Source: Morchella semilibera (lineage: Eukaryota > Ascomycota > Pezizomycetes > Pezizales > Morchellaceae). Taken from it: DNA of 64,000 nt. The translations under genes were made by a program, and so were the position numbers. Below the pieces are notes generated by a model. The model worked only from the letters and a program-made list of their open reading frames with translations, ran no database searches and was not told where the DNA came from. This document shows positions 1,776 to 47,700 of this stretch, piece after piece (the first letter of the stretch is position 1; each line of letters opens with the position of its first letter). The stretch lies in NCBI GenBank assembly GCA_009192285.1, contig CM018605.1:1512530-1576529 (forward strand), written 5' to 3'.

Positions 1776-4700
1776 GATTGCGAGCTGATGTTATTGGTGG
1801 GAAGTATGAAGGGAGACTCCTGGAGAGTCGTTTATAGTTCTGTTATTGTTTTAGACCAGCTGTACCTTCTACAGTCTGCTGGATGAGATGGGAAGAAGAG
1901 GAAGAAGAGAAGAAGAGAAGAAGAGAAGAGAAGGAGGGCTGGCCGGTAAGTGGTTGTGGCTTTGTCCGGAGAGGTTGAGCTGAGTACTAGTGGTTGTTGG
2001 TTGCTATCGCATCTGAGACATCACGAGGGGGTCAACGCCGAAGGATCCATGCAGGGGTGGGAGAGACCTTCCCCGAGATACATGTATACATAGGATATAA
2101 TCCAAGTTCAAGTCTCATGTCTAATATATTACAGATAAGTTACTATATACTATGTAGTAAGCACATATAGGACTTTGAGGGAACCTCATTCATTATTGTA
2201 TAATTATCACGTGAGTAGCGTCAATGATAGCTGTAGCCGAACAAAGCAGACCCCGGCTGTCTTTCTTGTTCTGTCCAGCTGGTGCAACTTCGGGCACTCA
2301 GGGGGCGAGATACACATACAAGTACTTACCTAGTACTCCATACCAAGATCTATTTTCTGTTTACTTATTACCCGCTGATATCATAGGAGCAGACATGACT
2401 AAACAAAGAAAAGAGGATCGACAGCGACTATGCACAAATCCAAAGAGCTTGAAGGCCCTGTTAACCGTCCGAGTGATCTACCATGAGTATTCAGCCGGCC
2501 GAGCCAACAACCACACAAAGCCAGGACCCGATTATCCATCACAGCCAGAGCTATTTTTATTTACGGCGGGATTAATTTTTACCTTTCGCAGGTAGCAACC
2601 GCCGATCTCGCCATTCCTCAAACCCACCACCATCCATGGCCATGTCAACACCGCCGGTGTCTAAAGCTTGCAGAGGTAGTTTATTTCAAGCATAAGGGTG
2701 ACCTTGGACCTACTCACCTTAACGAAACTGGTGGGTCTGAACGGTTGCCGGCGCGATTGGGACAGAACCTAATAATACTTACTTAGCTTAGTCACAAGTG
2801 TAGAGGTTGAGGATACGTGTACAGTACAGTATGTAGTAAGAAGCCAGTTAATGAGGAGGTCATCGTTATTACTCGTCCTTACAACCAAGACCTCCCATCG
2901 AGTTTAGCACTTTAACGCAGTATCCCTTAGTCTGTCAATGCTGACCCCCCCCCCCCTATAATAGAGGAATTCAATTTGTATGGAAGATCTACTATTTGAT
3001 AAGGGGATCTGTTAGTAAATCCACACAAAGTTGCTTCTTCTGGGGGGGCTAGCATTTTACTGACTATAGTACATGTCCAGTCCGCTACTCGTCTTGCGAG
3101 AGATAATGGTAGGTGCATATAGCTAGCTGGTACATACCACCACCCCGACCGAGGTACACCAACCGTGAAAAGTGATAACATATCAGCCCCACTTACGCAG
3201 GCTGCCGTATCTCTATCCCTTCGACAAAGTGCTGCTCTCACCATCTAGACCGATAGATACATGTAAGTCTACCGCTGACAATACGAGACCCGCAAGCAGG
3301 AAAACAAGACTGAGAACCAAGCCGTCACGGGGCACAGTATGTAGCCTCCTAGGCTTGTAGGGTAATTAAAATGCCATCTTAGTCCGTTGCCCGTAAACAT
3401 GCCGCTACGTCGAACCCCCCATCCAGTAGAGTAGCAATCCCTTCACACGAGACCGCGAGGTCAATAACCTATGAGACCTTGATACCGACCCCGTAGTTAC
3501 AGTCGGGCGGGGCTACCTTGTGCCCATCACCCCAGGTGTCAATTAAGCTCGCAAAGGTAGATGAATACATGTAGGTGCGATACAGGGCCTCAGAAACACG
3601 TATGTAGGTTGGAGAGGAGAGTCCCGTATATAAGTAAGTACATGTATATATCAGATCCAACCCTTGAAGCCTTAGCACGAAGCGTTCTCTCTAATACCCC
3701 CTAGCGCAAAACCCCGAGCCCCCCTAGTCCCCTCCCTTAACATTATACGCCCAAGCCCACGAACATGTACCTACAGCAAAGCAAAAAGACACCAGGCATA
3801 CCAATGACACACGGAGCACCAGCCGCCACGACCATGGATGCACAGTAACAAGGACAGCCAAAACCGAGTGACACGCCATGACTCCCCTCCTCCCCCCCAA
3901 GACCCCTAGCCCTGCCCGCCGGCCGGCACGTCCCGGCGAAACATACATACACGCACTAATCTTATCGATACCGGCGGGTCCATGCAAGCCCAACCCCTCC
4001 CCCACACACCATGCACCACCGGAGATTTGACAGGTTGTCGGTTGACAACTATCGATAAGCTGTCCTTTCCACAGTGGGGGAGGGGGAGGGGGAGGGGGAG
4101 GGGGGGGGGGGACAAGACAATGACAAGACGCTAAAATTGCTCATCGGGGAGCCTCACGCGAAAATTCACAGCTCGCGTTTTGAAAGGGAGTAAACTACAG
4201 AGGTGGGGAACGGTAAAGAAAAATAAATAAAATCATTCTCATAACACCCGCCGGCTGGAAGGAGAAGCAGAGGCAGATGAAAAAAAGAAGGGAAAAAAAA
4301 AATCTACACAGCGAAACGGACCAAGTTTCTTTTGTATATATCTGCAACACACTTCCGAAGCCAAAAAACGGGCGGGGGAAGGAGGAGAAGAAAAAAGAAA
4401 AAAAAAAGGACTTTCGAATTTCAGTTTATAACGCCCCCAGACCACACCCCAGGTAGTAAGATACGAATGCGAATGCAAAGCGACATAGAGAGATAGAGAG
4501 AGGGAAATGTAGGTAGGAGGGACAAAAAGAGAGATCGAGAGAGAGAGTAGTGATCCCAAAGGGAGTAAAAATAACAGTTGAAAGAAAAAAGAGTAATAAG
4601 AATCTCATCACAAGAAAAGAAGGGGAAGAAACGAAAGACAAGGAGGAGGATAGATGATAAAAAAAGAAAAGGGAAAAATATGCCGCTCATGGCCAGATAG

Positions 4701-4973
4701 CTAGCGAATACCTGCTTAGCCTCTGTTAATGTGATGTAAGTAACCAAATGAACTCTCTCCCCCTAGCCTCCTACTCTGCCTCTTATACAAGTTGCTCTTC
4801 GAATCATCTCACATGCCACTGATGCATCATAACACCCTTCAAGACCCGCCTCCCTCCTCACAAAAACAACAACAAACCACCATATTCAAAAACAATCAAC
4901 AACAAAAAGAGAAAAAAAAATAAAAGTAAAAGAATAAACTATACTAAAAATAAAAGATGCAGAAATTTATAAA
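1776..4973. other. gene-free spacer, SLC35F6-like gene to basic-protein gene
   Basis: No convincing gene. Just upstream of the transporter is a GA-rich tract (about 1895-1935). Four exact TACATGTA palindromes lie at 2079, 3258, 3566 and 3639. One copy of the bipartite CGAGTGA-N6-RTGA motif is at 3864-3882. A (GGGGGA)n run is at about 4076-4110. A-rich and GA-rich low-complexity sequence fills 4210-4700. The short reading frames here look like chance. Confidence 0.6.
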
Positions 4974-11037: not shown

Positions 11038-14000
11038 GGTTTTTCTTTATTTTTACTCTGGGTTTAGAGGATGTGGGAGGAGATCTGAAGGCCTTTTAAG
11101 AGGGAGAAAGGGTAGACGCGTCGGGATTGCGAGGGAGACGTGTTGAGTGCGGGACACGCGTGATGTCGCTTACATGCCTGCATGCGGGATGGCGTGGGGC
11201 GTTGAGTCAGAGGCTAGGGTGGACTAGCGCAGTGTGTTGATTGGCGGGACTCGGCATGGTGGTACAAGCTGGTTTACTGCGACGGTAGAGTCTGGACAAA
11301 GAGACTGTGTTAAGGTACCTGTACTATTTTATAAAGAGTTCATCGCCTAGGGATTGAGGCGGATCTATCTTTTTTTCCCCCAAAAATATGTAAGCTAGGT
11401 TTAAAGAGCAAAGAAGGTTAGCACCACCATGCGTTGAGAGGCTGTGGGCTAGTGGTTGTGGGGGATGGATACGGGGTGGTCGTGGAGGAGAGGTTTCCCA
11501 GCCGCGCATGGGGGCGGGTTCTATCCCCGCCCCTGGAGGACTAACTTTTTTTCCCCTCCCCAATAGAATGGGACTACCGACCCACTTTTGCTATGGTAGG
11601 GCGTAACTGTGCATGGCTGAGGAGCTCTGACTCTCCGAGCACTGCGGTCTGCGTCACGGCTGGAATGCCCGCCGTCGATGCGCTGCTGCAGCTCCCACGC
11701 TGAATGGCTTGGGCCGCAGAACCTGACAGGCCGGACGGTGCTAACGCAATTTTGCAAGCATGAGACGCAATTGCTACAGGAGTTGAGGCACAACTGCACG
11801 GTACGGTGGTATATCCACGCAGCTACTTACTTAGTATCGCCATACCAATGCAAGACTAACTTCAGCAACCATACATGTATATATACCAACCGCAGCATTT
11901 ACGGAACCAGTGATAGAAAACCTTGACAGCCAGCCAAACGCCCCCCCCCCCCAATTGCTTCTTGGTTTGGTGGCTGACAGCTATCGGGTTTACGGTGCCT
12001 ACATTGTGTTATGTTATGTTATATCCCCACCCCCCCACCCCACCCCCCCGCGGCCGGACACCTACACCCTGTAGCAAGCTTAAGAGAGTTCTCCGGGGGC
12101 CGCATGCGGGACGCATGGTCATGATCAATGCTCGCATATGGGCTGAAGGCTAGATACTTAGTAGTACATCAAAGACACCCCTCCCCAGCGCACTATAAGC
12201 ATAACGTAAAGCAACAAACGACAGTCCTGCGCAAACAGGGGAGAACATATGTGGGTCTCGGGGCCGCCCCGCTAGAGGAGTCAATTGTTAGGGCGAATAC
12301 AAACAACTAAGAGGAGCCGAGTGATACCCCGTGACGCAACACAAATGCACCGTTACAGTTAGGCTCCAAATACCGGTTTTACAGAGACACAACGACATTA
12401 TCGCGTTCTCTAGGCACCGCGTGGGAGTACGTATGTGGCCCAGTGGGTATACATACTTCAACTGATACGTTACATGACCGCATGAGCATGAGTTGATGAC
12501 ACAGAGGGCGTAAAAGTTCTTAGAGGCCAATTAGGTTCTTTCTGTGAGGGGGAGTAGTTGAGGCCTCAGTTGGTATCGCCCAAGGTGAACATATGGCGCC
12601 CGGAGCCCAGCGCCCACACCCAACCGCGAAACATGTTTAAGACAACCATTCCCGGGAATAGGCCGGCTTCATGAGGGGGTTTCGTTTAGTTGTGGGTCTT
12701 AGGGACCTGAACTCGGTGTTCGGCAGAGCGAGGTGGTGATCTCAGATCCGCGCGCTCTATCACCGCGGCCCTAGATTAAATCTTTTCCTAGCATATTATA
12801 GTAAGGGGGGCCACAACCACGGGTTCAAAAACGGCCTCCACGGCGGGGCTAGAATATCCATGGCCTTTTCTTCCACGGCCGCGGTTTGGGGTAGCGGTTG
12901 TCCCTGCACGGCCGTATGATATGTGGCCCAGACGGTGAACGGGGGCAATCACAAACAACCACCCCGGGGGCCGCAAACATCCCACCACAGGAAAACTCCC
13001 AACGGGCTGATCCCTCCTCTAGTCCAGCAAAGACCGAGTGATACCTAGTGACCAAAGCCTTGAGCAGCAGGCGCAAGCCAAGGCAGAAGCCGCACCCGCA
13101 CCACTGCAGCCTAAACCTTCCGGGGAATGCGCCGGTTTGGTGTCCCTCGGGGTAAATTAGAGGTAGTCCCCAGATGGGCCTGTTTTTCTGCGGGGTGGCG
13201 GTTTCTTTTGTTGGGGCCTTTGATTGTGGTGGTGGTGGGAAAGCGTTGCCAGAAGCTCACTGCTGGCTGCGTTATTACTTGCCGGCGGGATGTTAGAAAC
13301 ACCGTTGTATCCGGTCTTAGGTTCTCACCACCAGGGCCTGCTCCCGCCTTGTGTATCAGCTGTCCTACAACAACATGGCGACCGTGGAAGCCTAGAATAC
13401 CCGGCCGACAGTACAAACGACTGTGATGCCAGTCATTCACAGCCCAACCCTAGGTCTCAAGCTGCGAACGAAACATCGAGTGACCCCCCGTGACGCCACC
13501 CCCAGTGGCGACCCAGCCCTACTTAGGTCTCCTTAACCACACCGGCCGGCAGACCCGGTGCTGAGCAGAGTATACGGATAGACCCCCGCCGGTTGTGGAG
13601 ATATCCGGGGACAAAGATTGCCAAGACATTCGAGTGATGCTGTGTGATCAGCGACAGCAAGACCCAGCCCGGGGTGCTTGAACCCCGTGGGCTGGGCTCG
13701 TTGGTTAGCCTCTATCACGACTCCCTATTGTCGGCACTCTTCCCGTGCGGTTATATGACAAACCAACCCCCCCCCCCAACCCACTCCCCGCCCCGCCCCG
13801 CCCCGTCGGACTACACAGCCCAAAGACATGACGGGATTCACGCGGGGCGCAGGCTGGTATACAACCATCCTCTCGTGAATCTCATCATGTCCTCGGGCCG
13901 TGCAAGCTCCCACGGAGCAGGGCGGGACGAGTCGGTAAATTGGGGGGCGGGTGGGATCTGGGAGGTCTTCTTCGTCCCCGCCCGTCTGCAGGTAAGAGCC

Positions 14001-14981
14001 GGCTAGTAAAGGCGTAGGGCCGTCTTCGGTGGGGCATACCACGGGCTGCCCCAGCCGAGGTTCCAGTGGAGGTGAAGCGGGGTACTGTCTACCCAGCTAG
14101 GTACTCCCCCTGGGGGCAACACCCGCCGATGCCTATGACCAGCTGCTGTACTGTCGATGCACACACGCAGTCAGCAAGCGTCATGGAGGGGGCCTGATAT
14201 GGTGGACTTATCTTATCCTATCCTAGCTTAAAGCACCCCCCCCCTCTGAGTAGGTACGAAGATGTGCGGATAACCAGGCGGAGCTGGAAGCTGTGAAGCA
14301 GTCGCGGAGGAAACCCCACCTCCCCGGACCGGTTGCCATAGCAATATACAGGAAACAAACAAACACCAAGCCAACCGAGTGAGCACCCATGACCATGCCA
14401 CCCGGTACAACACGGAGACCCGCCGCCGCTGCCCCCGCCCCGCCCAGAACATACACGCCCCCCCCCCCATCCCCAAGTACAGCAACACCAACCGCCAGCG
14501 GGACCGCTCCGATACATGTACAAGCCGCCAGTGGCACCCCACGACCGCCCCGCCCCACGTACCGCCCGCCCCACGTACCACCCCAAGACCTAGCGCCAAG
14601 CGCGCCGAGGCGAAGGGAATATACACCCCCCGGCAGCGAGTTCTCTCATGGCCACGAGACCACACACACCAAACTAACCCAACCATATCGAGGCACCTCG
14701 TTTGCTCCGCCCGCCACCGTGAACCACACCGCCAAGCTAGCGCCGCACCCCGCCCCCGGGCGTCCAGATACAGGCTACGGGTATCCCACACCACACCGCA
14801 CCGCGCTTCACAGGCGCTCACTCGCCCGCTACCACTTTGCTTCCGAGGACGGACGGGGGCTTTCACACGCACGCTCCTACATTCCCTTTAATTCTATCTA
14901 ACATAACACTACCACTAACACATAACCTACACAAGCAAGCAAATTGCGCCGCCGCCCACCACACTACTAGATCACAGGCCG
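11038..14981. other. gene-poor, GC-rich repeat-like block
   Basis: About 4 kb with no convincing gene. It contains a tRNA-like element near 11.43-11.55 kb, TACATGTA at 11872 and 14513, and five same-orientation copies of the CGAGTGA-N6-RTGA motif (12317, 13034, 13476, 13630, 14375). From about 12.5 kb it is strongly GC-rich with C-runs. The reading frames of 100-210 codons on both strands at 14.2-14.9 kb are what GC-rich sequence gives by chance (few stop codons) and show no domain. Confidence 0.5.
11435..11552 (+). ncRNA. tRNA-like / SINE-head-like element with pol III signals
   Basis: An A-box-like TGGGCTAGTGG lies at 11445-11455 (consensus TRGCNNAGYNGG) and a B-box-like GGTTCTATCC at 11517-11526, inside a perfect GC arm (GGGGCGG / CCGCCCC type). 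A run of seven T at 11546-11552 would terminate RNA polymerase III. I cannot fold a cloverleaf: no 7-bp acceptor stem pairs across the ends, so it is not an intact tRNA. It could be a decayed tRNA or the head of a tRNA-derived SINE. Confidence 0.42.
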
Positions 14982-16870
14982 TCACTCGACCACACACCAG
15001 AGAGAGAGACAGAGATGGAGAGGGAGAGGGAGAGAGAAGAAACACCATCGAGAACCCAAATTGAAGTAAGAATCGACAGAGAAGAGAGACCAGAACGCAC
15101 CAAAACAAACAAAAAAACAGGAGCAAACCCGCACCGAACACACCGAACGCACCGAACCAAAAAACCGCACCAAAGGAAAGGAAAAGAAAGGAAAAGAAAG
15201 GAAAGGACCACACCACCCCAACACCGCCAGAGGAGAGAAAACAAAAAAAACACCCCTAACAAATGACACACCTCCCCTATCCCCCCTCCTAATGCCCCTC
15301 CTGCGGCGCCTGACCTCAGCGCCGCCCTCCTCAGCACCCATATGCGCGGCCCACGCCCTCTCGACCTTCTCCGCCTCGCCCCACTCGCCACGGACACACA
15401 GGGCCCAGTGGGCGTCGACCACGCCCTGCCACCCATAGAAGCACTTGACCTTGACCCTTCCGCCAGGCGCCGCGTTCTGCGCGAGCGCGGCACGCACGCC
15501 CTCCCACGTCACGCCGGGGCAGTCGTAAACCGCAATCTGCACCTCCGGGGACCCGCGGTAGCGCACGGCGCGCACCGCCTCCTCGAGCACCGTGTCGCCG
15601 ACGCGCGTGCCGTCCGCGTCCACCACGGCCACCCGGCACTTGCGCAGTACCTGGACGACGCCCGTGTCCGAGACCTCGCTGCACCCGCCTGCGTTCAGGG
15701 ATTGGAGCTTCTGGTGGCGCGCGAGCGCCAGAAGGCTGGCGTCCGTCACGGCGACGCACCCCTCCACGTCTACGTGGGTTAGGGCCCGGGCGGCGGTGAA
15801 GAGCGGGACGAGCCCGCCGTCGCCGAGCGCAACGTTCCCCGCTAGCTCGAGCGAGACTAGGTGTGGGGCGTGTGTCGCTAGGACTGTCATTGCTGCGTCG
15901 GAGATGCGTGGGCAGGCCGCCATGGATAGCTTTTGCCAGCGGCGGGGCGGGGAGGCCGCAGCCCCGCTGGGGCCCATGCATAGGACCCTTACGGCCTCGT
16001 CCGTGAGCAGCGGACAGCTGCTCACGTCGAGCGCAACCAGGCCGTTTGCGCGCCACAGCGCACCCCCACGGCCACGTCCTCGAACCCAGCGACCCCGCAT
16101 GCGCGCAGCTCCTTCAAGCTGCCCGCGCACCCATCGAGCAGCCTGCGCAGCCCGCTCGCCGTCAGCCCCGTGCACCAGCTGATATCGGCGCTCTCGAGCT
16201 CGGGCAGCGACTGCGCGATGAGCTTCGCCACGCTGTCCGTCAGCGCCCTGCACCCGGCCACGTGCAGCCTGCGCAGGCCCGGGTTGCGCACGACCAGGTA
16301 TCGCAGCGCCGAGCGGCCGGGCTGGGCGCCCTCCAGCACCACGGAGCGCAGGTTGCGCGGAGCGTTGTAGACGGCGTCTTCGCGCCAGTCGGCGGCGAGC
16401 TGGCGGCACCCGCGCAGGTTGAGGTGGCGGATGAAGGGGCCGGCGGCGGTGACGAGCGCGGCGAGCCGCGCCGCGGGGATGCTGGAGTAGTAGGTGCTTG
16501 TGTCGAGCGTGTGCCAGAGCTGGCCGTCGGTGGCGAGCTTGGCAAAGTCGCGGGAGGTGGCGGTGGTGCGCAGCAGGTCCCGCGGCGGGAGGTGCCGCAG
16601 GATGAGGAGCTTGAGCTCGGGGGGGAGGGGCGTCCAGTGGTCGCGCGGGGGCCGCGGGGGGACGGGGATGGTGATGTGTAGGGACTCGCCGTTGGTGCCG
16701 AAGGGGATCTCGACGGTTGTTGTCTTTGCTGTTGTGAGCGGGAGTGTTGGGGTGGAGAGGGAGGGGGTTGTGAGGGGGGAGAGGAGCGGTGGGAGGGGTG
16801 TGAGTTGCGGGGAGGAGGAGATTCGGGAGAGACGGTCGAGGAGACGTCGGCGGCGGGTTGGATGCGGCAT
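14982..16870 (-). CDS. F-box and leucine-rich-repeat protein (SCF substrate adaptor)
   Basis: Likely the substrate-recognition subunit of an SCF ubiquitin ligase. The start is the ATG at 16870 (MPHPTRRRRLLDRLSRIS). A Pro/Thr-rich N-terminus leads to an F-box at about residues 75-115 (PPELKLLILRHLPPRDLLR, then FAKLATDGQLWHTL). About ten cysteine-type LRRs follow, for example IRHLNLRGCRQL, LRRLHVAGCRALTDS, LVALDVSSCPLLTDEAV and LTHVDVEGCVAVTDASL. The pattern is like fungal Grr1/Amn1/Pof2-type proteins. The frame breaks within the LRRs at the C5 run at 16063-16067; a sixth base would join FEDVAVGG to ALWRANGLVALDVSS. The true C-terminus is uncertain. The frame stays open to 14982, but past about 15290 it runs through AAAGG and CACCGAACG simple repeats, so the protein probably ends near 15290 after a basic RRRRR stretch. 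Codon third positions are almost all G or C. Confidence 0.8.
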
Positions 16871-18052
16871 GGTGATTGTCTTTTGGTGAGTCTGTCTCTG
16901 TTTTCTTGACTGCGGGGGTGAGTGAGTGAGTGAGGGGAGTGAGGTATAAGTAAGTGACCAGTACAGAGGTCGATATCGCACCTCACGGGTATCTGTAAGT
17001 TGTTCCTGTCCTTCCTTCCTTCAAGCAGTAGTAACAGAAGCAGCGTCCGTCTCAAAGAACCTCACGCACAGAAGAGACCAAGAAATAAATATATGCGTAT
17101 ATATATTTATCAACAGTCAGCCTCCCCACATCCACACACACACACGGCCCTTATATATATATATATATGAGAAGCAGCAGACCCCTCTTTGGAAATATGG
17201 TGTGGTGGTGGTGGTGTGGTGTGTGAGAGTGTGAGAGTGTGGTGGGTGTGCGGGGTCGAGATCTGATCTGACCAAATCAATCAATCAACCAGCCTGGCCA
17301 ATAAACACCAGTCCAGTCCTGAGTGGAGTGGATCTCGAACAGCATCAGCCAATCCGTGGAGAGCGCTCCGTGAAGAAGAAGAGAGGGCTTAACCGCCACA
17401 CCACCACCACCGCCATGGAGATGTCTGTTAGAGAGTTACTCGTTGCAGAGAGAGGGAGAGATACAGAGAGAGAGAAGAAAACCCCCTCGTCTTATCGATA
17501 ACAACCCCTCACTCACTCCTTGCATGTGGCTAAAATAGATGAATAGGCAGGAGAGGGGAAAAGAAAGGAAGAAAGGAAGCTCACACGACCAGATCACATA
17601 TGTTTCTTCTGTTTCAAGGAAGAGTAATATGCAGGGCTTTTCCCCGTGCGAGTTACGGTCGTTTTCACGATGCTGCTGCCCCCTGAGTGATTAAACGAGC
17701 TCGGCATAGCTGCAATACAATACACAACACAATACAATACGCAATACACAACACAATACCGCAGAGTTGGAGCTCTCATTACGATGGGTAAATAGGCAAT
17801 AAATAATGATAATGATGATAATAATAATGATAATACTTTAGATATAGATAATAATAATAAACAATATTAAGCAATAACAAGCATAACAAGCAATAACAAG
17901 CAAATAATACACGTGAAATCCTCTTCTCGCATGTGCAACTCTCACACCACACACACATCATAAACCCCTAACCCACACACACCTCCGCTCCATTCCAGAC
18001 AATTCGATATTCCCCCCCCCGACACTCCCGCTGCCACTCCCAACCCCCAATC
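16871..18052. promoter_or_regulatory. shared promoter region of the divergent F-box/LRR and PXA genes
   Basis: A 1.18-kb stretch between two divergently transcribed starts, so it must hold both promoters. It contains an (AT)n run at about 17150-17168, GTGTGG and GAGA tracts, a CCACCACCACCGCC tract at about 17398, an AATAC/ACAAT simple repeat at 17715-17760, and an AT-rich TAATAATGA stretch at 17800-17910. I see no reading frame worth calling. Confidence 0.5.
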
Positions 18053-19475: not shown

Positions 19476-20739
19476 GTGTGTGTGTGGGGGGGGGGGGGGG
19501 TAATGGGACTGGTGTTTGTATGTAGACGGCGTTTTTTTTTCCATAGCGGGTAGGTAGGGTAGAGCGTAAATAGAATCATTGATACCCATGCCTGCGCACG
19601 GTACCGGCAGCTCTCTTCTCTGTAGACTCAGGTAGCTATGAACGAACTGAACGGGTGTTGTGTTGTAAGTACACCCCGGGCGCGGCGGAGATGCGGCGAC
19701 GTCGCGCGTCACGGGGTATCACTCGTTTCCAGCTAATTTAGCGTAGGGCTTCCATCCATAAGGCCGCCCGCGCGCATTCCTACACCTAGTGCGTAGCAGG
19801 GCGGGTAGACGCTTCAATTTATATGGATGCAGGTTATAGCTGTGCATGCCGTGTGTTCTGTTCGCCGCAATAGAATTAATCCCCCAATTAAGCTACCACC
19901 ACCCACCACCCGCCCGCCACGGGCCGCCCCGGGCGTGCAGGGGTGGCAGCAGCGGGGGGTCAAACGTAAGCCCCCACCCCAAAGCCCCGGGACAACAGCC
20001 CAAGCCAAACCACACCCAAGCCAAAAACCCGTGCAGACCACAACAACACACGGCGATCTACCGGAGAGCGCAAGCCTAGAAACGAAACCGGGTGATAACC
20101 ATTTCTAGGGCTGGAGCCTGCAGCAATTGGAAATTAGCACGATGTTTACAGGGGGTACTTTGAGGCCTTCTGGGTCTATCTATATATACAAACCCCAAGG
20201 TCTATCGATTGGTGATGGTCCGGGCTGTATAGATACAGAGCGTAGGAGCATCGGTCGGCACCGTGTTGCGCGGGCAGGCCGGGGTTAGTTGGTTGGGACA
20301 CCCCCCAAGTGGGAGCGTGGTGCGCTGTGCACCTGGCTGCGCTGCCGGTGGGTGGGCGGGTCGGCTAGCCGGGCCCGGTGTCTAGGGCGCTGGGTCCGGG
20401 TGAGGTGCGAGTCACGGGTTGTCACTCGGCCCTTGTGGGGTGGGGTGTCGGCTTCTCCACGGTCTGTATATTGGGGCTTCTATAGCTCTACTAGTCCGGT
20501 CCGGGGTGGGGCGCGGGGATGGGACGCTGGGGCGCGGGGGTGGGTGAGTCATGGGGTATCACTCGCCTTTACTTCACTACTAATTGTCCCTGTAGGCAGA
20601 GTGTGGAGTGCGCAGACTATGGCTAGCAGTCGGGAGTCTGGGGCTGGGGCGGTCATACTTCACATGGCCAACCAGACCAACCACGTCCCATATACCTGTA
20701 TCTTAGCTATCTACAGATACCCACTAGCGTTATGCACCC
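19476..20739. other. gene-free spacer with clustered bipartite motifs
   Basis: Convergent 3' ends flank this stretch. It opens with a G-run (about 19488-19500). It holds three minus-orientation copies of CGAGTGA-N6-RTGA (19708-19725, 20411-20429, 20548-20565) and a weaker variant beginning CCGGGTGATAACC at 20088. No gene is visible. Confidence 0.5.
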
Positions 20740-21685
20740 TCACTTCCCCCCCGGCCTCCCGCCGTTACAAAACCCCCTAATCCCGCCCTTAACCTTGCCC
20801 TGCTGTTTCCCCGCGCCGTCTGCACGCCCCGCCGCCGCCAGGGGTCCCGGCCCCTTCTTCTCGGCCGCAGAGATCTTTCTCTTCTTGTTGTTTGGTGGCG
20901 CTGGGGGCTTTGTCTTTGTCTCCGTCTTTGGGGGCGTGTACTTTGGCTCCTCGTCGTCCTCGTATCTGTCCAGCTGTAGAACGGTTAGCTAGCCCGGTGG
21001 GGGGGGGGGGGGGGAGGCGGGCGGGCACTCACGCCGTATTCGCACTCCGGGAGCTCCTTCAGGGACCTCATCGATGGGTTACGGCCCTTGCGGGTCCTAC
21101 CGCCACCACCACCACCACCACCCCTACATGATCAGCAGCGCGCACACAATCCAAGGGGCCAGCCACGACACATACCCGAACCACAAGCGCCTTGCCAGGC
21201 GCAGCGTCTCGCCCACAAAGCCACCAAGACAGATGACCTCTACGCCGAGCTGCGGGCGGGCGAGGCTCTCCGCCACCAGCCGCACCCCCTCACACACCCG
21301 CCCCTCCCACCACGACCCCGGGATCTGCCTCCGCGCCGCCGCCTATCCCGTCAGCACACGCACACGGGGAGGGTGGGTGGGGGGGGACACATACCTGCTG
21401 AGCGGCGGCGGCGACGACGACGACGGCGCCGCCGAAGCTGTGCAGCACGAGGGCCGTGATCTGGGCGCGGGTGTGGGCGCCCGCGGCGCGGGGACACGCC
21501 TGGATCGCGAGAATGGAGGCCGTGGCGGGCGTGAAGTGGGCGGCGATGATGCCCGCGTGGTGGAGGCTGTCCGAGGCTGCGCTGAGGAGGTGGGTGTTCA
21601 TTTTTTGGGCCGCGGAGGTGGGGTAGGACTTGGGGCAGAAGAGGCAGTGGAGGGCCGGGGTGGCCGTGGGTGTGTGGTGGCCCAT
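20740..21685 (-). CDS. unrecognised protein with hydrophobic N-terminal half and Lys-rich tail
   Basis: A four-exon model in consistent phase: 21685-21395, 21342-21176, 21123-21033 and 20973-20740, giving 260 residues. Introns have donors GTATGT, GTATGT and GTGAGT, and the second has a CTGAT branch site and a TAG acceptor. The start is uncertain: ATG at 21685 (MGHHTPTATPALHCLFCPKS) or at 21601 (MNTHLLSAASDSLHHAGIIA). The first half is Ala-rich with candidate helices (ITALVLHSFGGAVVVVAAAA, GVEVICLGGFVGETLRLARR). After a Gly run the tail is basic (RTRKGRNPSMRSLKELPECE, then KKRKISAAEKKGPG). If intron 2 is retained, the frame instead ends at a TAG at 21124-21126 after LAPWIVCALLIM, an alternative with an extra membrane-like helix. 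I do not recognise the family. Confidence 0.55.
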
Positions 21686-23476: not shown

Positions 23477-25462
23477 GGCTGGTGTGGAGGTGGGGAGTTG
23501 GTATCGAATAGGTATAGATGCGGAGCTATGGCTTACCTGCACGGGTAAGCACCCGCACCTCTGTTGTCGTGTCGTTGAGGTCAACAACCCTAACCCTGGT
23601 GCTGGCGGGTGGGCAGGGTAACCGTTGGACACTATGCTTCCGTCCAATTTATGCTGTAATAGAGACTTTAATTGCGGTCGATGAAGCGCAAAGAGGCAAC
23701 CCCCTTTGAGAATTGGCCCACAAGGCGAGATCCTACATACCAACACAGGAGACCCCGCCCCCACACTCCAGCACAACCACCCACAAAATGAGATACTGTA
23801 TACTCATGATCGATCACGGGACTGTTTCCGACTACTATCATGCTCCACAAAGACAACCAACCACGTGCAATGCTGTGTAAGCTACATGTACTTACACACC
23901 CTCCGCACCATGTCTGCCCCAGGGTACTCAAAATCAAAAGAAGGCCCGTCAGACACACGCACACAAAACTCTTGCCAGTGGGCACATATGATGCTGCTAT
24001 GGCTACCGGAATGCATTGTCGGCTCACAATCCCACAGGTAGGCTAAGACACGTGTCACTGAAAAACGTCTACATGTATGGGAAATACTACTCCACCCTGC
24101 CAAATTGAAGTGAACGGTTACATGAACCAACAAACCTAACTAATCCCGTGTGAGGGCCGGGGGGTTGGTTAATAATAGTATGGCGTTCAATCTAGATCTT
24201 CGCGTGCAAGTAGCATATACCCTATGTGGTGGTGCCCATATTGGCCACTCCACACCTCTGCGAACTCCCCATACCGGCCATTCAACAATGACCGAACCGA
24301 ACAAAACACAACACGCACGCCCGCGACACCAAGTGAACCCTCATTACCTTCAAATACAAGGCCAAGCTTAACCCGCAAACACAAACAATAAACAGCCAGG
24401 GATAAAAAAGCAGAGCGACAAAAGGTTTTTTCAACCCCCACCTGCACGGGGATTGAACGTGTGACCACCCCGTATAAGGTGGCAACAACGCCCCCCAGAG
24501 CGGTGTAACGGGTGGTGAACTGCTGAAGCCGAGCTATTTACTGCTCGGCCACGCACCCCGCTGAAAGAACCTGTCCCGGCGGATTTCTTCAACCAATGTA
24601 GATATACATAACCTGCAGACGGAACAAGTATCGCGCCCTATGTAGCCCTGCCTTGTAATTAAATCATACCTTAACCCGACTGGTGTAAAAATAGACAATT
24701 GGCGCCATGTCCCTTAAGGCCTAGTACCCCCCGTCTAAATCCTCCGGAAGGAAAATGAACACGCTGGTTGCCAGGACTGCGGCTATTTACTATGTACTCC
24801 TCGATAAAGGAGATATATCATAAGAAGGCTGCCAGGTTCAAAAAGGGAAATAAAGGATGTTGCTGTAGAAAGGGTAGTGTTCCTGTGGATTTAGAGAAGC
24901 GCACTACTGTGTCTTTTATCTAGTAAAACAGCTATGACAGCACCACCGTATATAGCGGCCAAGAGTCTATTCTTCTTATATGGATTTAGAGTGTTACTAA
25001 CTCTCTCATAACTGCAGCTTAGTTCGATACGGCGACTCTATAGCTCATCGTGGCCAGTTTACATTTAGCGAGGCGACATTTAGCGTCGGTTGCCATCCCA
25101 CTAGGGAAAAGCCAATGATCGAACTGCAGCTTTATACGCATCACAACCCATCACTCGCGCACAGTAATGATCGGAAAGGATTTTGTCTATAAAAGTGGCA
25201 TCACCGCTCGATTACCCCCGCGACAAAATGAAAAACAGAAGGAAAACCGAAAGCAGAACAAAAAATGCCATGAAAAACACCCCAAGATGATGAACGATAA
25301 AAAAAAAAAACACAAACGTCATATAATAAAAAAAAAACCCCTTCCAGGTACACACTCCCACTCACTCATCCTTTACTCTGCTTTTCGACATCCTCATATC
25401 TCAATACATATAAAAAAAGAAGAAATCGCCTATCCTAGAAACATACGAAAGACTGATCGCGC
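23477..25462. other. spacer with tRNA-like element
   Basis: No protein gene recognised. TACATGTA palindromes lie at 23883 and 24070. A tRNA-like element is at 24.40-24.56 kb. A minus-orientation CGAGTGA-N6-RTGA copy is at 25141-25158. A-rich low-complexity sequence lies at 25210-25340. Confidence 0.5.
24404..24556 (-). ncRNA. tRNA-like element (Leu/Ser-type A box, B box, T-run)
   Basis: Read on the minus strand, a GTGGCCGAGCAGT at 24552-24540 matches the A box and D-arm of type-II (Leu/Ser) tRNAs, and CGTTCAATCCCC at 24459-24448 matches the B box. A T6 run follows (the A6 at 24404-24409 on plus). The D-arm-like stem GCCGAGC/GCTCGGC is longer than in a real tRNA. The 5' GGGGTGC has no complementary 3' GCACCCC, so no acceptor stem forms. 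A decayed tRNA gene or tRNA-derived SINE fits better than a working tRNA. Confidence 0.38.
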
Positions 25463-28868: not shown

Positions 28869-31800
28869 CTGGAATAGGCACCCAGATAATATCCAGAATC
28901 ATGGGGCAGCCCCAAAGGGTTCGAGAGGGCTTGTCTAGAGTTTAAGGGTAGGACCTTAATGCACAAAAAGGCTGGGCGGGATTGCCAACCGAGAAACAAG
29001 CTTTAAGGCTTCTAGAAGAGTCCCGGTTCCGGGATACAGGGACATATGGCGCCCAAAACCTTACACTAGCAAACTCGGGCTAGTACTTATTCCTGCCTTT
29101 AACGATATGTATCCAAAGTTTGATGAGTTACCGGCATGTACTCATGATACATTGAACCGGCGAACTTAATGGTCAATGCCCTAATCACCCACGCATTTTA
29201 TCTTTCCCTCCTTGCGCATTTGATAGAATTTCATAAATGAGTATAAGTATTTGCATTTAGAAGCTTGGTTTGAGACCCAAAAACAATTTTGTCGACTTGT
29301 GCAGATTCGAGGGTTGTACGACCTGAAGTATCGCTATTGTCGCAGGTCAGCAGCCCTAGCGTACATTCATGTATGTTCTGGAAACAATAGGGTGTTTTTC
29401 TGTTGTACAAGGGGTGAAATCTTACCTTACCGGTGATCTATCGGTAGATGCACCTATTTTTAGAACAGACTACCGGTCGATCCGCGGGTGGGGTCGGAAA
29501 CCTGTCAAATTTATTGCAGGGGTCCGTGTAAGGATGTAACGGGATACTGTGAATACAGAAGCGTAGAGCCCAAGTTGGAGTATATTGTCCAAACAAGGGT
29601 GACCCTAAGATTTTCTGGTAGTGGGGCACGGAGGGTTGGTTTTAAGGTTCGTTTAGGCATCCTGAGGTCAGGTCCTATGCAAGTTCAAGAACCATATAGA
29701 CCTCTAGAACAACCCAAGAAGCCAAAGTACCTTCGCAGACATAGCTGCTCGTGGCTGATGAAAACATCACCGCCTCCAGCCAAGGGGAAACCCTCAGCCC
29801 CCACCCGGATAGTAACATTGCTGAATAACCGGGATACTAGTAAACGATGATAGACCGGGTCGTTCAGTTTGGTGATTTATCGCTGACGAAAGAAGATCCC
29901 TTCCTCTTATAGCCATATGCGGCTACCGATAACCCTTAACTTAAGTGGGTGTTGATAGTGAGAGCGTTTTAGTCCTCCCATTTTTCCAGACTCGCAGCGC
30001 CGAGATATGCGCCGAGTCCTGTAAGAGTGCCTAAATCGGAAACGATCTGTAGTGATTAAGGCTCCCTATTGGTCTACTTTACACTCTTACAGGGCTCGGC
30101 GCTGCGAGTCTGAATTATGGACGAAATATGGCCGAAATATGGGGGACTAAAACGCTCTAATAATGACCCAAAAATCACCAGCGAGGGTAGACGGGTGATA
30201 AACTTGCTATATGTGCGGCTGTTGTTAAATTGAACTTGTATCTGTGAAGGGCATCACTATAGACGTCGGGCCTTGGTAGGCTAATGGGCGGTGGCACTTG
30301 GCAGAGTTGTCAGCTTGAGAGTCGATAAATGAATGAAGATAAGAAAGTTGAGGTTATCCGTGGAGGTTATCTTATCACAAAAAGTGAATCACATTTCCAA
30401 AGGTGGTTACGTCACGAGACATGATTGCAAGCACGTCAATCACCATATATCACTCGCATTATTACAGCGGCTCAGCGCGTTGTAAAAAATCACCTGTTGG
30501 ATGACATGCAGGTCAATATAAGAGGTTGCTAGGCCCAAGATTGACCACGTACATACTCGTTTGTTTTCCACTTTGGTACCAGGATAAGGTTTTCTTAGTT
30601 CATTATACTTTAGTCTATCAATCGATACGCGTTGGTAGAAAATGCGGGGAAGGCCGTATAACAGCAGCCTAAGCACGATACTATTTCCTATGACCACCCA
30701 CTCACCACAACATGTTATCGATTCCATCGTGTGTTTCCTCTTCACATATGAACAACCCCTCCCCATCCCGTCCTTTCTTGAAACTCCAACTGATCTTGAG
30801 GTCATCACTAGGGGTGTCGCCCTCTCTTCGTGTGAATCAACTACCTGAAACTGATTAACAGTAGTTCTATGAGCGGTACGTGTAGGACTAAAGGTCGGGG
30901 GTGCTTTTTAAGCCCCTTCTACCTGAGAACCTCTTGATTTCTCATAAGCTTAAACTACCTCGTGCTCATGATATATATTGAGATCAACTACAGACAACGC
31001 AACGCACCAACTGAACTTTGATGGCCTACCAACACCAGCACCAGACTACCCCTCCCCTACCTCCTCGGATGGATGAAAGCCACAATGTCATCTGGTGAAC
31101 ATATACTACATCGGATTCCGCCGATACAAAGAATACAGCCCTTTGCGGCCACAAGAAACCAACACTTGGCTCTTGAGACAATGCCCCCTCGAGATCATCT
31201 TTAAAACGCCAAGTTACACGAGATAGTTTGAGGTGAAGCCTCTCGGAAATCTCCATGTTTCTAATCCTCAGGGCCGAGGCATCTTCATCTTGGTGTCATC
31301 ATAATACCTAACAGCCCAATAAACCACACGCAGTTACAAACTGGGCTGTGGGAAGCGAATTTGCCTTACATCATAAAACTCCAAGAGTCTCTTGGTTTTG
31401 CCATTGAAAAGCCCTCCTTCCTAATCCGCGGGTCCCTGATCCGCAAGAGCGGTAGTGGCAAAGGGGGGACACGGTGGAACCGCCCAAACAAGGTTCTTCT
31501 GGGCGATTTCCATTGAACCACAGACCTTTTCTTTTTTCTTTCTTCTCTTCCTTGAACATGGTGGCTTTCGCCACAAAAAAACTTTCCAACACTTCGCCGA
31601 TTCTTATTTCAACGGCTCCGGGTGACATCTATGGTGCCCATCGGCCGACGCAGTAGTTACCGCAGTCCAGGGGGTGCAAAATCAGTCAAAGATCCGCAAT
31701 GCAAGAGAGCAAGCCGTGTTCGATTGAGAATCATACTACATAAATGCAAATTTGATTAAAGGAAGCTGCATACCGGACCACACAACAATCTCATCTATTT

Positions 31801-41720: not shown

Positions 41721-41752
<32 letters not shown>

Positions 41753-44700
41753 AGGGAGTGGTGTGTTGGAGGATATGGTTGTAAGCGATGCGATGTACTG
41801 TACATAAAGAGTGAGAAAGAAAGGAGGGAAAAAAAGTTACCCACATCTACCAGGACCTGTTGATACATATATCTTGGCGTTTCCCACAACCATGGATTGC
41901 ATGATCATCACATGGGGTGGGAGGGAGCGGGAGGAGGGAGGGGAGGGATGGGGAAGGCCGCACCTCCTCTACCTACATGTACATATGATGCCCCAGCCTC
42001 CAAACGTCATCAAGCTGCTCGAGTGATATCTCATGACGGGACTCAAGCCGCAAAAAGAAAAAAAAAAAAAAAAAAAAAAAGCCGCAGTGTTTCAGGCTAT
42101 ACTGCACCTCTAACTTGCTCTAACTAGAAAATCTTCCAGTCCGTGCGCATGGAAAGTGGAAAAGCGAAAAGTGCGTAGAAAAACCTTATCTTCGCCCCGG
42201 CCCGCAAGGACTCGTAATTATCTCCGCGGTCTTACTAGTAAGATCCCCCAGAGGCCTGCGCCGTCGGCGCCTTGGCAGATTTCTCTTGGTGTAACATGGC
42301 AAAGTATCAGGCAACACAACCAGGTAGCTTTTTCCCTTCCTTCGATTCTTCCTTCCTTCCCTTCCTTCTTTCTTCTTTTGTCCGATGGAATAGCTCCGAG
42401 TTAGATCTGGCTTATTTCTTTCTTCTTTTCTTCTTCTTGTTCCATGTCGCCTTCCACTGACCTTACTTATTCCTGATCCTGGGTGGGCTTGGACACTACA
42501 AGTATCGGATCTGGGGTATTAAATAGGACTGAATCTCCCTTCCCCCCACCATTACAACACCACCAGGTCGACTAAGTACTCTTGGTTTGATTTAGGTACG
42601 TCTAGCCAGCCCATCCTTAAGGTTTTCAGCCCGTTTTTTTTTCTCTCAGTCGATCAGGGATCCGACTATCGTCATCAGACCTTACATGATGTGCTACATA
42701 CATATGCCACTCACTCATTAACTCACTCACTGCAGGGGTTTGGTTGATTAGTGAATTAGTTGATTACTTTTTCTTTTTCTTCTGGACCGCAGTCGAGGAT
42801 CTTGGCCCCCTTCCCTCCGCACGTTGCTATTCTATTCGAGAGGAACCTTGGTGGTTAATTAAGCTAACATCCATCCACCACACCGAGAAAACCTCGCAAC
42901 CGGTGTCACGGTGGCCTTCCTACCCCCAAAGACATATGGAGTGGATGGGTGCGTAGACAACCGATCCCATTCCTAACTCCAACGAGATGTTTGTGCGGTC
43001 GGGTTGGCATCCTTTCCTATATTCCCTCGAGCCCAGGAAGGTACCAAGTTACAATACCTAGGTGGTGCAATTTAACCGCCCCCCCTCCCCACCAAATTCG
43101 TTTATCCAACCGACTCTATTACACCTCCCTGCATTCATACGAAACCCACGTTTCTCTTTCGCATACCTACCCTTTACCCCCACCAATACTTGACGTCATT
43201 ATAGGGTTAGGGTTCCTAGAACAAGGGCTTTCGTCCCATCACTCGGCTCTGGTGTATGTAGCTATTTTTGGAGGGCGGGTGCGGGTGCGGGTACGGGTGT
43301 TAAGCGTTTTGGGTGGCAAGAGGATCGGGTCACGGCGAGGCTACTCCCGTGGAGCGATGCTGGTGTGCCGGGTGTGATGGTCCTTTCACCGTGGGCGTGG
43401 TTGTGGGGCCCGGGGGATACCGGGATACCGCGGGCCCTCGGCCCATGCTATAGTTACCTCTTGTTAATGTATGGCGGATGGAGAAAATTGCGATCTTTTC
43501 TGGAATGGTTCTTGATGGTTCATGATGCCCCCCCCCCCCTCTTTACTAACTTTATAATTATTGTTTGGTCGGGTAGCACTTTTGGGGAAATGACACGTAT
43601 TTCTCGGAATTGAGGTGTTTCGATCCTCTAATATCTTAGTATACTACTAGCTCCGAAAGGAGTACGTCCAATCATTGACCCTTAAGCGATGGGAATGTGA
43701 TTTGTGAGTATGTAGGTACATTCGGGCGATCAAAGAACTAAGGTCAGGCCTATATATCTAAGATTAATTAAAACTTCCGTGCCCCCCGGGTTTCTAGGTG
43801 GGTGGCTAATCTCTCTTGATGTTGGGTCTTTGGGTAGGCTGTACGCGCCTATATAAGCTATCGGTTATGTCCATTACTTTGTGGAGCTTGTAGTTTATAT
43901 TCAGTGAGACCTAAGAGATCATAATTTTTCGTTTGAGGGGTGGAGGTACTCTTATATACCAAACTACTTGCATGATTATCGAGAAAGAGCTGGCATGGAA
44001 TTGGTAGCTGTAGTCCTCCACCCAGCAATCTAGTTCTTCTGTGACAATTAATGGCGATACATGTTAGCGGGGCCAAGTTGTGCCTGGTTACCTAGTGATA
44101 GCTCCCCAAGCATCAATCCGGGTTCATAGCTACTACATGTAGTATAATAGGCCCGCCAACTCAGTGTCTCGACCCAAATGTTCTGTGTCCGGACGTTGGA
44201 GTAGGGGCTAGCGTGTTCCTAAGTAGTAGTACTTTTCGTCTCTTTTTGGGTAGGTGGCTCACGGGAGGGTTGGCTATGCTACGGGCTAGGGAACTCCACC
44301 ATTTGTTTACTTATACGTCATACATATGGAGCGGTAAATGTGTCAAAAGTAATTTTACCACAGTGGTATAAACACTGAATTTCAGTCTTTATGCTCTGCT
44401 ATGCTAGAGTACATCACTAACTCTATTGTCCACCGGTGGATCTAGACCTAGCTAGGTCACCGCGAAAAGTCAACTTTAGGACTAGAGATATTCTAGGCTT
44501 AGGTGGGTGTAATGAGTTTACGGGTTTGGGGTCTCACTAGCGATCAGGCGCGACAGAAACCTGCGCACTCAGCTGGAAAACTCGCACTTGCTTAATTTAC
44601 TCCAATTTATACTCCAATTTACGTGTTTTGGGGCGTAGGACGAGACGAATTAATTGTTGACCGCCATCTAAGGTCCATCATGATATCTTTTGTAACTTTG

Positions 44701-47700
44701 TCCCCATACAACCCCGTCATCAGAAATTATATGCCGGATTTACTGTGTTGCTAGATTTTATAAGGATGGAGGTAGGTTGATTGGGGAGGGGGGGGGGAGC
44801 CGGAGGTGGAGGGATGGCCCATTTGACCAAGGTGTTGTTGGGCACTTTGATTCTGGGGCCCCCATATTGCTTGTGACTTGTACCCTCTTTAGACATACCG
44901 GAGTAATGGTAGCTAAACACTAGACGTAGCACCCGAGGCGCAGCAAGCATCCAGCCGGTTCTCGCCTGCCCGGCCCCAATTTCGGATTTCTTCAGGGACT
45001 CCGAGTGATATCTCATGATCCAATATTAGTTACATTATGTAACACTGATTGATGTAAACAAGTGCCTTGAGGGTGTAGTGCGCGGGAACGATCTGCTTTC
45101 TCAAGATATATCTAAAGGGTAGGAGTATATAATATAATCTAATATAATCATAGGAAGTAGAGGTCGAGAAAGCTAGGGCGGCAAGTTGGCAAGAGGCAGA
45201 CGAAGGGACCACTTTAGCTCCAACACTACTGGTCCGTTTCAAACACTCTGCCATATGCTGTGGGTCGGATCTTAGCCTGTTCCCGTTCCCGTTGTTCGGT
45301 TTAAAACCCTTTAGCTGAAGTGAACACTTGCATGCACTGGTACCGTTCCATGCGTCTTTTCTTCACACAGACCGCATATAGTTGGCTGTTTTTCTACGTG
45401 GCTTGGCAAGCAATTGGGCCTAGGCGGTGGGCTTATCGTCTTACACTTATGTCTGACCCTAAATCCGTACTATCCTCTCTGCTTGGCTCATGAGCCCACT
45501 TAGAATAGCAACGACTACTACTTCTGTATGCCCAGGGTACCTCGTCTCTCGTACTGATACATGGGGTAAAGAGGCAGGATAGCGTCACACATCATCCAAG
45601 GTCTTTCTAGGTATTTTACCCATGATGCTTCGGCCATTAGTCCTCCCCCATCACAATCACCAGGGCCAATTGATCACTAGTCTGTGTTTGTTTGTCCCTC
45701 CATGGGCCCCACCAATAGTGCGTTATATTACATTACACTATGAAACTTTTAGGCAGAGGCCGTAAGCGCCGGCCGTAGACTGGTTCTGCTGCAAAGACCC
45801 GGAAGATACGGCGAAAGAAAGAAAGGACCGGATATATATGCACTGAACCGGGTGATAGAGAATGTTCTGGTCGTGGTAGAGGGAGAAAAAGATGAGGGGA
45901 GTAAACAGCCGGAGTAATAATAGGGATGAAACTACTCGAGGCCGGGCCCAGGGTCTACGAGATTACCCAACAGTGGTGAGTCCGTTCGCATGGGCTCTTG
46001 GGGATTTTGTAACCATGTTGAGTAAGTCTAGTGTTAAATATGTATTAGGTTTGGGACTTGAGAGGCAGGAAATACAGGTATGTATTGCTATAGAGACTAA
46101 GAAGATTGGTAGAAAAAGGATTTATAACCGACTTGATATTTTGATTGTGACAGGGGAATCCGTTAGGATGTTCTCACTAGAATGACCCACTTATTTCTCA
46201 ATCTTATTGGTACATATGACCTCGTTTATATTCATACACTTTCATGAGACCTCTCCCAATGCTAAGAAGATCTCGGGACTAAAAGCCTCACGAGTCTCCC
46301 GAGAGGTCTCAGGCTCACTTTATAACTGAAAGCATTAATTATGTATGTAAATGAAGGGAGGGAAACCCCATGAGCTAAAAAGACAAGCGAAGCAGGGTAG
46401 CCCCACAATACCGAATCCACGGAACGTATGGGAAGGCGTAAAATAAAATGCTCTCTGTGAATGGTTTGCAAGATAGCACCGCTATGTTACATTTTCCTTG
46501 AGTTATCAAAGCTTGGTACATAAAAGAGCACCAGATAAGTATATATCAGATTCAATCCGCCATATATATATATATGATTTCCGATTGGTTGTAGCCTCTA
46601 GTCTCCGACAAAGGGTATCCCCCAATCCGTGTAAAGGTACCCGCTGCTAGACTCCAATAACATCAGCCGATGTACTATTCTATAGTTTGACACACGTACA
46701 ACACTTTGGCCGGCATTAAGTACTGCACACATACTTACATGTATACACATGTAGTGGTCCTAACGTCTACATAAGCAACGGAATTTAGCACATGGGTTAG
46801 GGTTGTGACGATGACAGTCCACAACCTGTGCATGCGGCCCAAGTCGTAGGGTAGATTATGCCCTTGAGACTCCTTCCGACATACTTTTGTTGTTGGTTGA
46901 AATAATATACAGGTAATATCTCGACTTGCACCACCCCTCTATAGAAATATCACTTTCGGTACGGAATAACTAATCTCCGACCTTGGCATAAGCATAACTG
47001 TGCTCGACTTGCCCGAGGCTTTAATTAAACCTATCGATACTAGGTCACATTGTATGATGAATTGACTACATACATATGTATACATATGTATGTACGAGGC
47101 ACTTCACTAGACAGTCTCGTTTAATCTGTTCGACTCGACCGGCCCTACCTTTCCTAAATCACAACCCATCACTCGCCACGCACGCACCCGTACAGTAACT
47201 ACATTCCTCCACCAGCACCCGTCAATGCTTTTATATATAACATAACGATACACAAATTCAAATTAGCTGGCTGGGGGATGGCTGGGTTGTCATAGCGTAG
47301 CATGTGGCAAGCATGGGCCGGTACGGTACGGTACTCGTTGATTGATCGTCGTTATCTCCATGCCATGAGGGCCGTGTTGAAAATGCAGCTACATGAAGAT
47401 TTCAAACCGCGCCCGCCCCCCCCAAAAAAAAGAAAAGAAGCGAGAAAAAAAAACAGCTCAAAACAAAACGTTAATCAACGTTTTGGATGGATCGCGATGA
47501 ATACTCCAAGGATGGAGGATGGGTCGAAACGTCATTATTGTGCTCTCTTCGATTCCCGGGTTTTTTTATACAACTTTCGAATTGCGACCCCCCAACCACC
47601 CCCCCTCAACCCCCAGTCAGGTCAAGGAAAGCAGCCCGAGCGCGAAAAACAAAAACAGTGGAAAATACGAGAAATATGTATGTATATATATATATTTTTT

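What the first reader, a model, noticed from the sequence alone, without database searches (positions are those of the whole stretch)
3864..47175. Dispersed bipartite motif CGAGTGA-N6-RTGA, at least 14 copies, all between genes
On one strand or the other I find CGAGTGA, six variable bases, then GTGA or ATGA. Plus strand: 3864, 12317, 13034, 13476, 13630, 14375, 42019, 45001. Minus strand: 19708, 20411, 20548, 25141, 30440, 47159. The two GTGA halves are a direct repeat 10 bp apart, one helical turn. The six-base spacer varies freely (TACCCC, CACGCC, TACCTA, TGCTGT, TATATG, TATCTC) while the halves stay fixed. Flanking sequence is unrelated from copy to copy, so these are not ends of one long repeat. 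A pattern with about 10.5 fixed positions is expected about 0.06 times in 64 kb. Variable spacer with fixed halves looks like a site for a DNA-binding protein with two tandem contacts. Looser versions (CGGGTGATA at 20088 and 45848; half sites at 33713 and 43233) suggest decay or weaker sites. I know of no described fungal element of this form.
Basis: seen in the sequence. Interest (0 to 1): 0.78.

Follow-up and report, generated by a model that had tools for sequence, protein, structure and literature searches.

The report
Morel genome's strict two-part DNA motif
A morel mushroom genome carries thousands of copies of a short two-part DNA word, mostly between genes, which looks like the docking site of an abundant but still unidentified DNA-binding protein.

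Summary
The window holds 18 exact CGAGTGA-N6-RTGA sites (0.02 expected), four more than listed. The genome, matched to the published Morchella crassipes assembly, holds 8,470 against 44 for the reversed pattern, slightly inflated by redundant scaffolds. Flanks are unrelated; the 20-bp footprint is near BCGAGTGA-B-R-N-YYY-RTGA-YB, i.e. RTCAY twice, 10 bp apart, on the other strand. Exact copies outnumber one-mismatch copies (8,470 to 5,227, some 1,500 expected by chance). Tolerance is graded by position (1: 1,454 variants; 2: 226; 14: 90; 17: 1,558), which looks like binding specificity and not decay. In two contiguous blocks 2 of 34 sites lie in called genes covering 43%. Neighbours under 2 kb apart tend to share orientation (61 of 88). 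No preference for gene starts or ends was established. Best reading: recognition site of an abundant general-regulatory or architectural protein, its copies kept by selection. Protein and function are not shown. No description was found in the papers listed by my searches.

The parts
3865..3881 (+). site CGAGTGACACGCCATGA
12318..12334 (+). site CGAGTGATACCCCGTGA
13035..13051 (+). site CGAGTGATACCTAGTGA
13477..13493 (+). site CGAGTGACCCCCCGTGA
13631..13647 (+). site CGAGTGATGCTGTGTGA
14376..14392 (+). site CGAGTGAGCACCCATGA
19709..19725 (-). site CGAGTGATACCCCGTGA
20412..20428 (-). site CGAGTGACAACCCGTGA
20549..20565 (-). site CGAGTGATACCCCATGA
25141..25157 (-). site CGAGTGATGGGTTGTGA
30440..30456 (-). 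site CGAGTGATATATGGTGA
42020..42036 (+). site CGAGTGATATCTCATGA
45002..45018 (+). site CGAGTGATATCTCATGA (same spacer as 42020, unrelated flanks)
47159..47175 (-). site CGAGTGATGGGTTGTGA

Best explanation
The motif is the recognition site of one abundant, sequence-specific DNA-binding protein of Morchella. Shown: footprint about BCGAGTGA-B-R-N-YYY-RTGA-YB, asymmetric, fixed spacing, thousands of copies, mostly outside called genes. Inferred: the protein contacts two RTCAY/RTGAY words on the same face of the helix one turn apart, through a row of C2H2 fingers or two tandem helix-turn-helix/Myb units, with looser contacts across the spacer. Inferred: it works as a general regulatory or architectural factor (opening chromatin, insulating or bracketing genes) and not as the switch of one regulon, because there are about 0.7 sites per gene and no tie to promoters was found. 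Inferred: most copies are kept by purifying selection, because copies broken at position 2 or 14 are hardly commoner than controls.
For: Window: 18 exact against 0.02 expected. Genome: 8,470 exact against 44 for the reversed pattern; 13,697 within one mismatch, so 5,227 with one mismatch, reversed control 1,513; the same words with a 7-base spacer give 1,567 within one mismatch. In an open gap search (0-30 bases) 87 of the 100 listed rows have spacer 6 (my count). Variants by position, reversed control in brackets: 1 not C 1,454 (322); 2 not G 226 (160); 3 not A 357 (84); 14 pyrimidine 90 (30); 17 not A 1,558 (139). Footprint without flank signal (61 sites, 200 sites). 2 of 34 sites lie in called genes covering 43% of two contiguous blocks, P about 2e-6. 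Neighbours under 2 kb share orientation in 49 of 72 and in separate blocks 12 of 16. In a dyad screen of 150 kb it is the main gapped dyad that is not a simple repeat or TACATGTA-like (rows shown).
Against: No protein, binding, expression or chromatin data. No relation to gene starts or ends was established: nearest end 3' in 18 and 5' in 14 (P 0.19) in the two contiguous blocks, 19 and 8 (P 0.38) in the site-centred loci. One search, which pooled a block chosen for its site cluster, showed a 3' excess (44 to 22 at one threshold) and a borderline excess between convergent genes (P about 0.06); I do not rely on either. Real binding sites usually tolerate more mismatches than these do. Identical spacers recur more than independent columns predict (38 pairs against 20, P 0.001), which could mean some copying between sites. 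TACATGTA is over-represented too (17 against 0.53), so abundance alone is not unique. Gene calls are my own, without RNA.
Confidence: 0.62

Rival explanations
1. A classical promoter or enhancer site of one transcription factor with a very large regulon, not an architectural or general factor.
For: Mostly outside called genes, protein-like specificity, orientation shared between close neighbours.
Against: About 8,470 sites for 11,565 genes; no promoter preference in my gene maps; a cluster between genes called as convergent, seven sites at C1:858513-864488.
Confidence: 0.2
2. A self-spreading or driven sequence: exact copies are favoured by biased repair, uptake or conversion, as with bacterial DNA uptake words.
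For: Exact copies outnumber all one-mismatch copies, the hallmark that I recall for uptake sequences; identical spacers recur in excess.
Against: No known process of this kind in fungi (recalled); tolerance is graded by position like binding affinity.
Confidence: 0.06
3. Remnant of a dispersed transposon or MITE family.
For: Thousands of copies. Position-1 variants occur as same-strand pairs 7-8 kb apart (for example C1:4009449/4016699), which looks like long terminal repeats.
Against: No similarity outside the 20-bp footprint; no exact site in about 17 kb of Ty3-type ORFs, though only about three would be expected there.
Confidence: 0.03
4. An RNA element in transcripts (UTR signal or small RNA).
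For: Asymmetric sequence; 2 of 34 sites lie in called genes.
Against: No strand preference relative to genes; equal numbers on both strands genome-wide (4,226 and 4,244); no Rfam match in the window at gathering scores.
Confidence: 0.03

Closest known systems
Yeast general regulatory factors Abf1, Reb1, Rap1, Cbf1 (recalled)
   Same: Abundant, strict, often bipartite intergenic sites. Abf1 (RTCAY, gap, ACG) and Cbf1 (RTCACGTG) share an RTCAY word with this motif.
   Different: Here two RTCAY words repeat head to tail 10 bp apart with a TCG extension; no such consensus is known to me. Far more copies. No promoter preference found.
CTCF and animal insulator sites
   Same: Asymmetric 14-20 bp site, thousands of copies, outside genes.
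   Different: The CTCF gene is said to be restricted to animals, and fungal boundary regions to await detailed study (passages of PMC10246852). Orientation is random beyond 2 kb here (50 of 115 same).
CENP-B box / pogo-type two-HTH recognition (recalled)
   Same: Two contacts about one turn apart in a 17-bp box with a variable middle.
   Different: Sequence differs; sites are dispersed and not centromeric satellite.
Bacterial DNA uptake sequences (recalled)
   Same: Exact copies outnumber near-misses; dispersed on both strands.
   Different: Eukaryote, no competence system implied, graded tolerance, intergenic bias.

Membership tests
General regulatory factor site (Abf1/Reb1/Rap1 type) | Strict, abundant, mostly intergenic sites | tested here: met
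General regulatory factor site (Abf1/Reb1/Rap1 type) | Matches the consensus of a known factor | not tested
   Compared only by eye with consensus sequences recalled from memory, none of which fits; no motif library was available
General regulatory factor site (Abf1/Reb1/Rap1 type) | Concentrated in promoters upstream of starts | tested here: inconclusive
   No significant preference with home-made gene calls
General regulatory factor site (Abf1/Reb1/Rap1 type) | Nucleosome-depleted, bound by the factor | not testable with these tools
   No chromatin data
CTCF-type insulator | CTCF protein present | not tested
   A literature passage says CTCF is restricted to animals. The genome was searched only for single C2H2 fingers (22 matches, 150 of 201 candidates scored, no array listed); that search is insensitive
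CTCF-type insulator | Convergent pairs at domain scale | tested here: inconclusive
   Beyond 2 kb orientation is random, 50 of 115 same; no contact map
Transposon/MITE | Copies share sequence beyond the motif | tested here: not met
DNA uptake or driven word | Perfect copies exceed single-mismatch copies | tested here: met
   8,470 against 5,227
DNA uptake or driven word | Transmission or uptake bias | not testable with these tools
   needs crosses

The most novel reading that the evidence does not exclude
Morels possess a genome-wide architectural system of their own: thousands of strictly kept, oriented sites for a lineage-specific multi-contact protein that brackets genes or sets chromatin boundaries, a fungal counterpart to the job that CTCF does in animals.
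Probability: 0.18. Interest if true: 0.87.

Novelty: new variant of a known kind. Interest (0 to 1): 0.63.

Why it matters
CTCF is said to be restricted to animals, and the boundary or insulator regions of fungi remain to be examined in detail (PMC10246852 passages). A word this strict and this frequent, about 0.7 per gene, points to a protein that matters across the whole genome and that could be fished out directly with a 20-bp probe. It also offers a natural test of how thousands of short noncoding sites are each kept intact.

Tried and rejected
Transposon origin: rejected on flanks; absence from the Ty3-type ORFs is only weak support. Gene-end preference: an apparent 3' excess was not significant when the cluster-selected block was left out and expectations were matched. 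GC-skew switch around 75 sites: two to two and a half standard errors in single bins, not used. Haplotype comparison for constraint: scaffold pairs C9/C10 and C12/C13 turned out 100% identical over the 5,000 and 4,000 bp compared, so they give no test; my notebook entry calling them haplotypes was wrong and was corrected. tRNA association: none found in the window, with the bacterial setting of the tool. Candidate protein: a C2H2 search gave 22 matches, no array listed. Paper searches: nine. sought the assembly. The other eight sought the letters of the motif or fungal regulatory, boundary or cohesin-site motifs; none of the listed papers described it as far as titles and abstract starts show, but the lists were capped (20 of 3,706; 10 of 7,912, none of the ten holding the word Morchella; 6 of 110). 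Of papers I saw passages of PMC8419926, PMC10246852, PMC13208314 and PMC7014384, and the whole of section 2.1 of PMC7014384.
Full report
Observation. An exact search finds 18 copies of CGAGTGA-N6-RTGA in the window, 10 on the plus and 8 on the minus strand, with 0.02 expected from dinucleotide shuffles. A tighter form with the flanking preferences, BCGAGTGAB-N5-RTGAYB, still matches 15 of the 18 and none in 100 shuffles. Lone CGAGTGA half sites are in moderate excess too (15 outside exact sites, 5.8 expected for all).

Organism. The window is C3:1512530-1576529 of a genome of 56,756,124 bases in 23 contigs whose first contig is 7,341,407 bases long. PMC7014384 reports for Morchella crassipes strain M10M26 23 scaffolds, 56.7 Mb, longest 7,341,407 bp and 11,565 genes (passages and one full section); PMC13208314 gives 56.76 Mb and 23 scaffolds for it (passages). 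I take the identity as settled. Many dispersed 5S genes (47 matches listed) fit an ascomycete.

Genome count. 4,226 plus 4,244 exact copies, against 15 plus 29 for the pattern read backwards. Scaffold pairs C9/C10 and C12/C13 are identical where compared (5,000 and 4,000 bp), and C21/C22 share a stretch of 5S genes at constant offset, so the true number is somewhat lower. On C1, 188 sites between 25.8 kb and 1.098 Mb are close to random apart from an excess of gaps under 2 kb (72 against 55.5 expected, P 0.001) and one empty stretch of 138 kb.

Anatomy. In 61 sites with flanks, no column outside the 20-bp footprint carries more than 0.15 bit, while the base just after the second half is a pyrimidine in 51 of 61 and the next is never A (0 of 61). 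In 200 listed sites, all from C1, position 8 is never A, position 9 is A in 108, positions 11, 12 and 13 are pyrimidine in 141, 158 and 170, and position 14 is A in 128 and G in 72. Identical spacers recur somewhat more than independent columns predict (38 pairs against 20, P 0.001), perhaps in part through a dependence between positions 12 and 13. Read on the other strand the motif is RTCAY-RRRN-Y-RTCACTCG: the word RTCAY twice, 10 bp apart. Spacer length is fixed: in a search allowing 0 to 30 bases (11,561 matches in all), 87 of the 100 listed rows have six (two of these are printed with a shorter overlapping match), and a 7-base spacer gives only 1,567 matches within one mismatch against 13,697 for the 6-base spacer.

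Strictness. One-mismatch copies number 5,227 (13,697 minus 8,470), about 1,500 of which are expected from the reversed and the 7-spacer controls (1,513 and 1,567 within one mismatch). Exact copies therefore exceed all one-mismatch variants together. Variants by position, with the reversed control in brackets: position 1 1,454 (322), position 2 226 (160), position 3 357 (84), position 14 90 (30), position 17 1,558 (139). Positions 4-7, 15 and 16 were not tested one by one; by subtraction they share about 1,540. Positions 1 and 2 form a CpG whose two decay products should be equally common. Of the 100 listed position-1 variants, all on C1, 49 begin with T by my count, which would scale to some 700, while all three position-2 variants together number 226. 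This asymmetry speaks for binding tolerance and against passive decay. The rarity of near-misses at positions 2 and 14 suggests that lost sites do not linger, i.e. strong purifying selection on single sites; this step is an inference.

Surroundings. Home-made gene calls (3-periodic Markov model with splice signals) were made on the window plus the next 50 kb, a 50-kb block of C1 (taken where one search's list showed sites) and a 16-kb block of C1 chosen for its site cluster. In the first two, 2 of 34 sites lie in called genes that cover 43% (P about 2e-6), or 37% after leaving out the last 30 kb of the first block, where the retroelements lie (P about 3e-5). Real gene anchors in the window include Ku80 (PF08785, PF02735), a PXA protein, a BTB protein and an LRR protein. 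Sites show no significant preference for gene starts or ends; a pooled result suggesting 3' ends and convergent intervals included the cluster block and is not relied on. No strand bias relative to genes was seen. Neighbouring sites less than 2 kb apart point the same way in 49 of 72 cases on C1 (P 0.0015) and 12 of 16 in the other blocks (P 0.04); beyond 2 kb orientation is random (50 of 115 and 9 of 16). Leaving out the seven-site cluster at C1:858513-864488, 55 of 82 remain (P 0.0013). So the direction of the site matters locally, or some close sites arise from each other.

Other words. A dyad screen over 150 kb (the last 30 kb of the first block left out) brings up, among the rows shown, this motif and the palindrome TACATGTA as the dispersed words; the rest are simple repeats. 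The screen's third block had been chosen for its cluster, a small bias.

Mechanism. Shown: an asymmetric 20-bp footprint with two fixed words one helical turn apart, base tolerance graded by position, fixed spacing, thousands of copies mostly outside called genes, local orientation coherence. Inferred: a protein with two major-groove contacts on one face of the helix; reading the strand in triplets (GAG, TGA, TRN, YYY, RTG, AYB) would suit a C2H2 array of five or six fingers, and two tandem HTH or Myb units would suit as well. The C2H2 search listed 22 matches and no array, but such a search of short domains is insensitive. Role: with about 0.7 sites per gene and no promoter bias found, a general regulatory or architectural factor is likelier than a single-regulon activator.

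Comparison. Yeast general regulatory factors work in a like manner and some share the RTCAY word (recalled), but the head-to-tail 10-bp repeat with TCG matches none that I know. CTCF is said to be restricted to animals, and fungal boundary regions to await detailed study (PMC10246852, passages). I therefore file it as a new variant of a known kind, the protein-recognition site, with membership in any named family untested, inconclusive or not met. The papers listed gave no description of it as far as their titles and abstract starts show; three of those lists were capped.

Noticed in passing
window 2079, 3258, 3566, 3639, 11872, 14513, 23883, 24070, 32619, 38330, 40983, 41974, 44134, 46736, 53881, 61774, 63898: Palindrome TACATGTA occurs 17 times against 0.53 expected in shuffles, and 50 times in 164 kb of two blocks: a second strongly over-represented dispersed word in this genome.
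   Followed up: partly
contigs C9/C10, C12/C13, part of C21/C22: Scaffold pairs carry the same sequence (100% over the 5,000 and 4,000 bp compared for the first two; shared 5S positions for the third): apparently redundant scaffolds in the published morel assembly, so genome-wide counts are inflated.
   Followed up: partly
C1:4009449/4016699, 1914037/1921850, 1443392/1450633, 741479/749749: Position-1 A variants of the motif occur as same-strand pairs 7-8 kb apart with the same spacer, as expected for the two long terminal repeats of a retrotransposon; the element may have taken up the site.
   Followed up: no
C1:635606-773910: 138 kb without an exact site although a sampled 4 kb of it (L046) holds a thioredoxin-fold (disulfide-isomerase-like) gene; unexplained.
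   Followed up: partly
window 25602-27188: ORF with an array of about 34 copies of a 24-bp unit encoding ADESVDAP-like acidic repeats.
   Followed up: no
L037:2136 to L038:9153 (C3, about 32-49 kb beyond the window end): About 17 kb of Ty3-type retroelement ORFs (gag, protease, reverse transcriptase, integrase) without any exact motif copy.
   Followed up: partly
window 12000-22000: GC-rich patch (57-68% against about 48% elsewhere) that holds 10 of the 18 sites.
   Followed up: no
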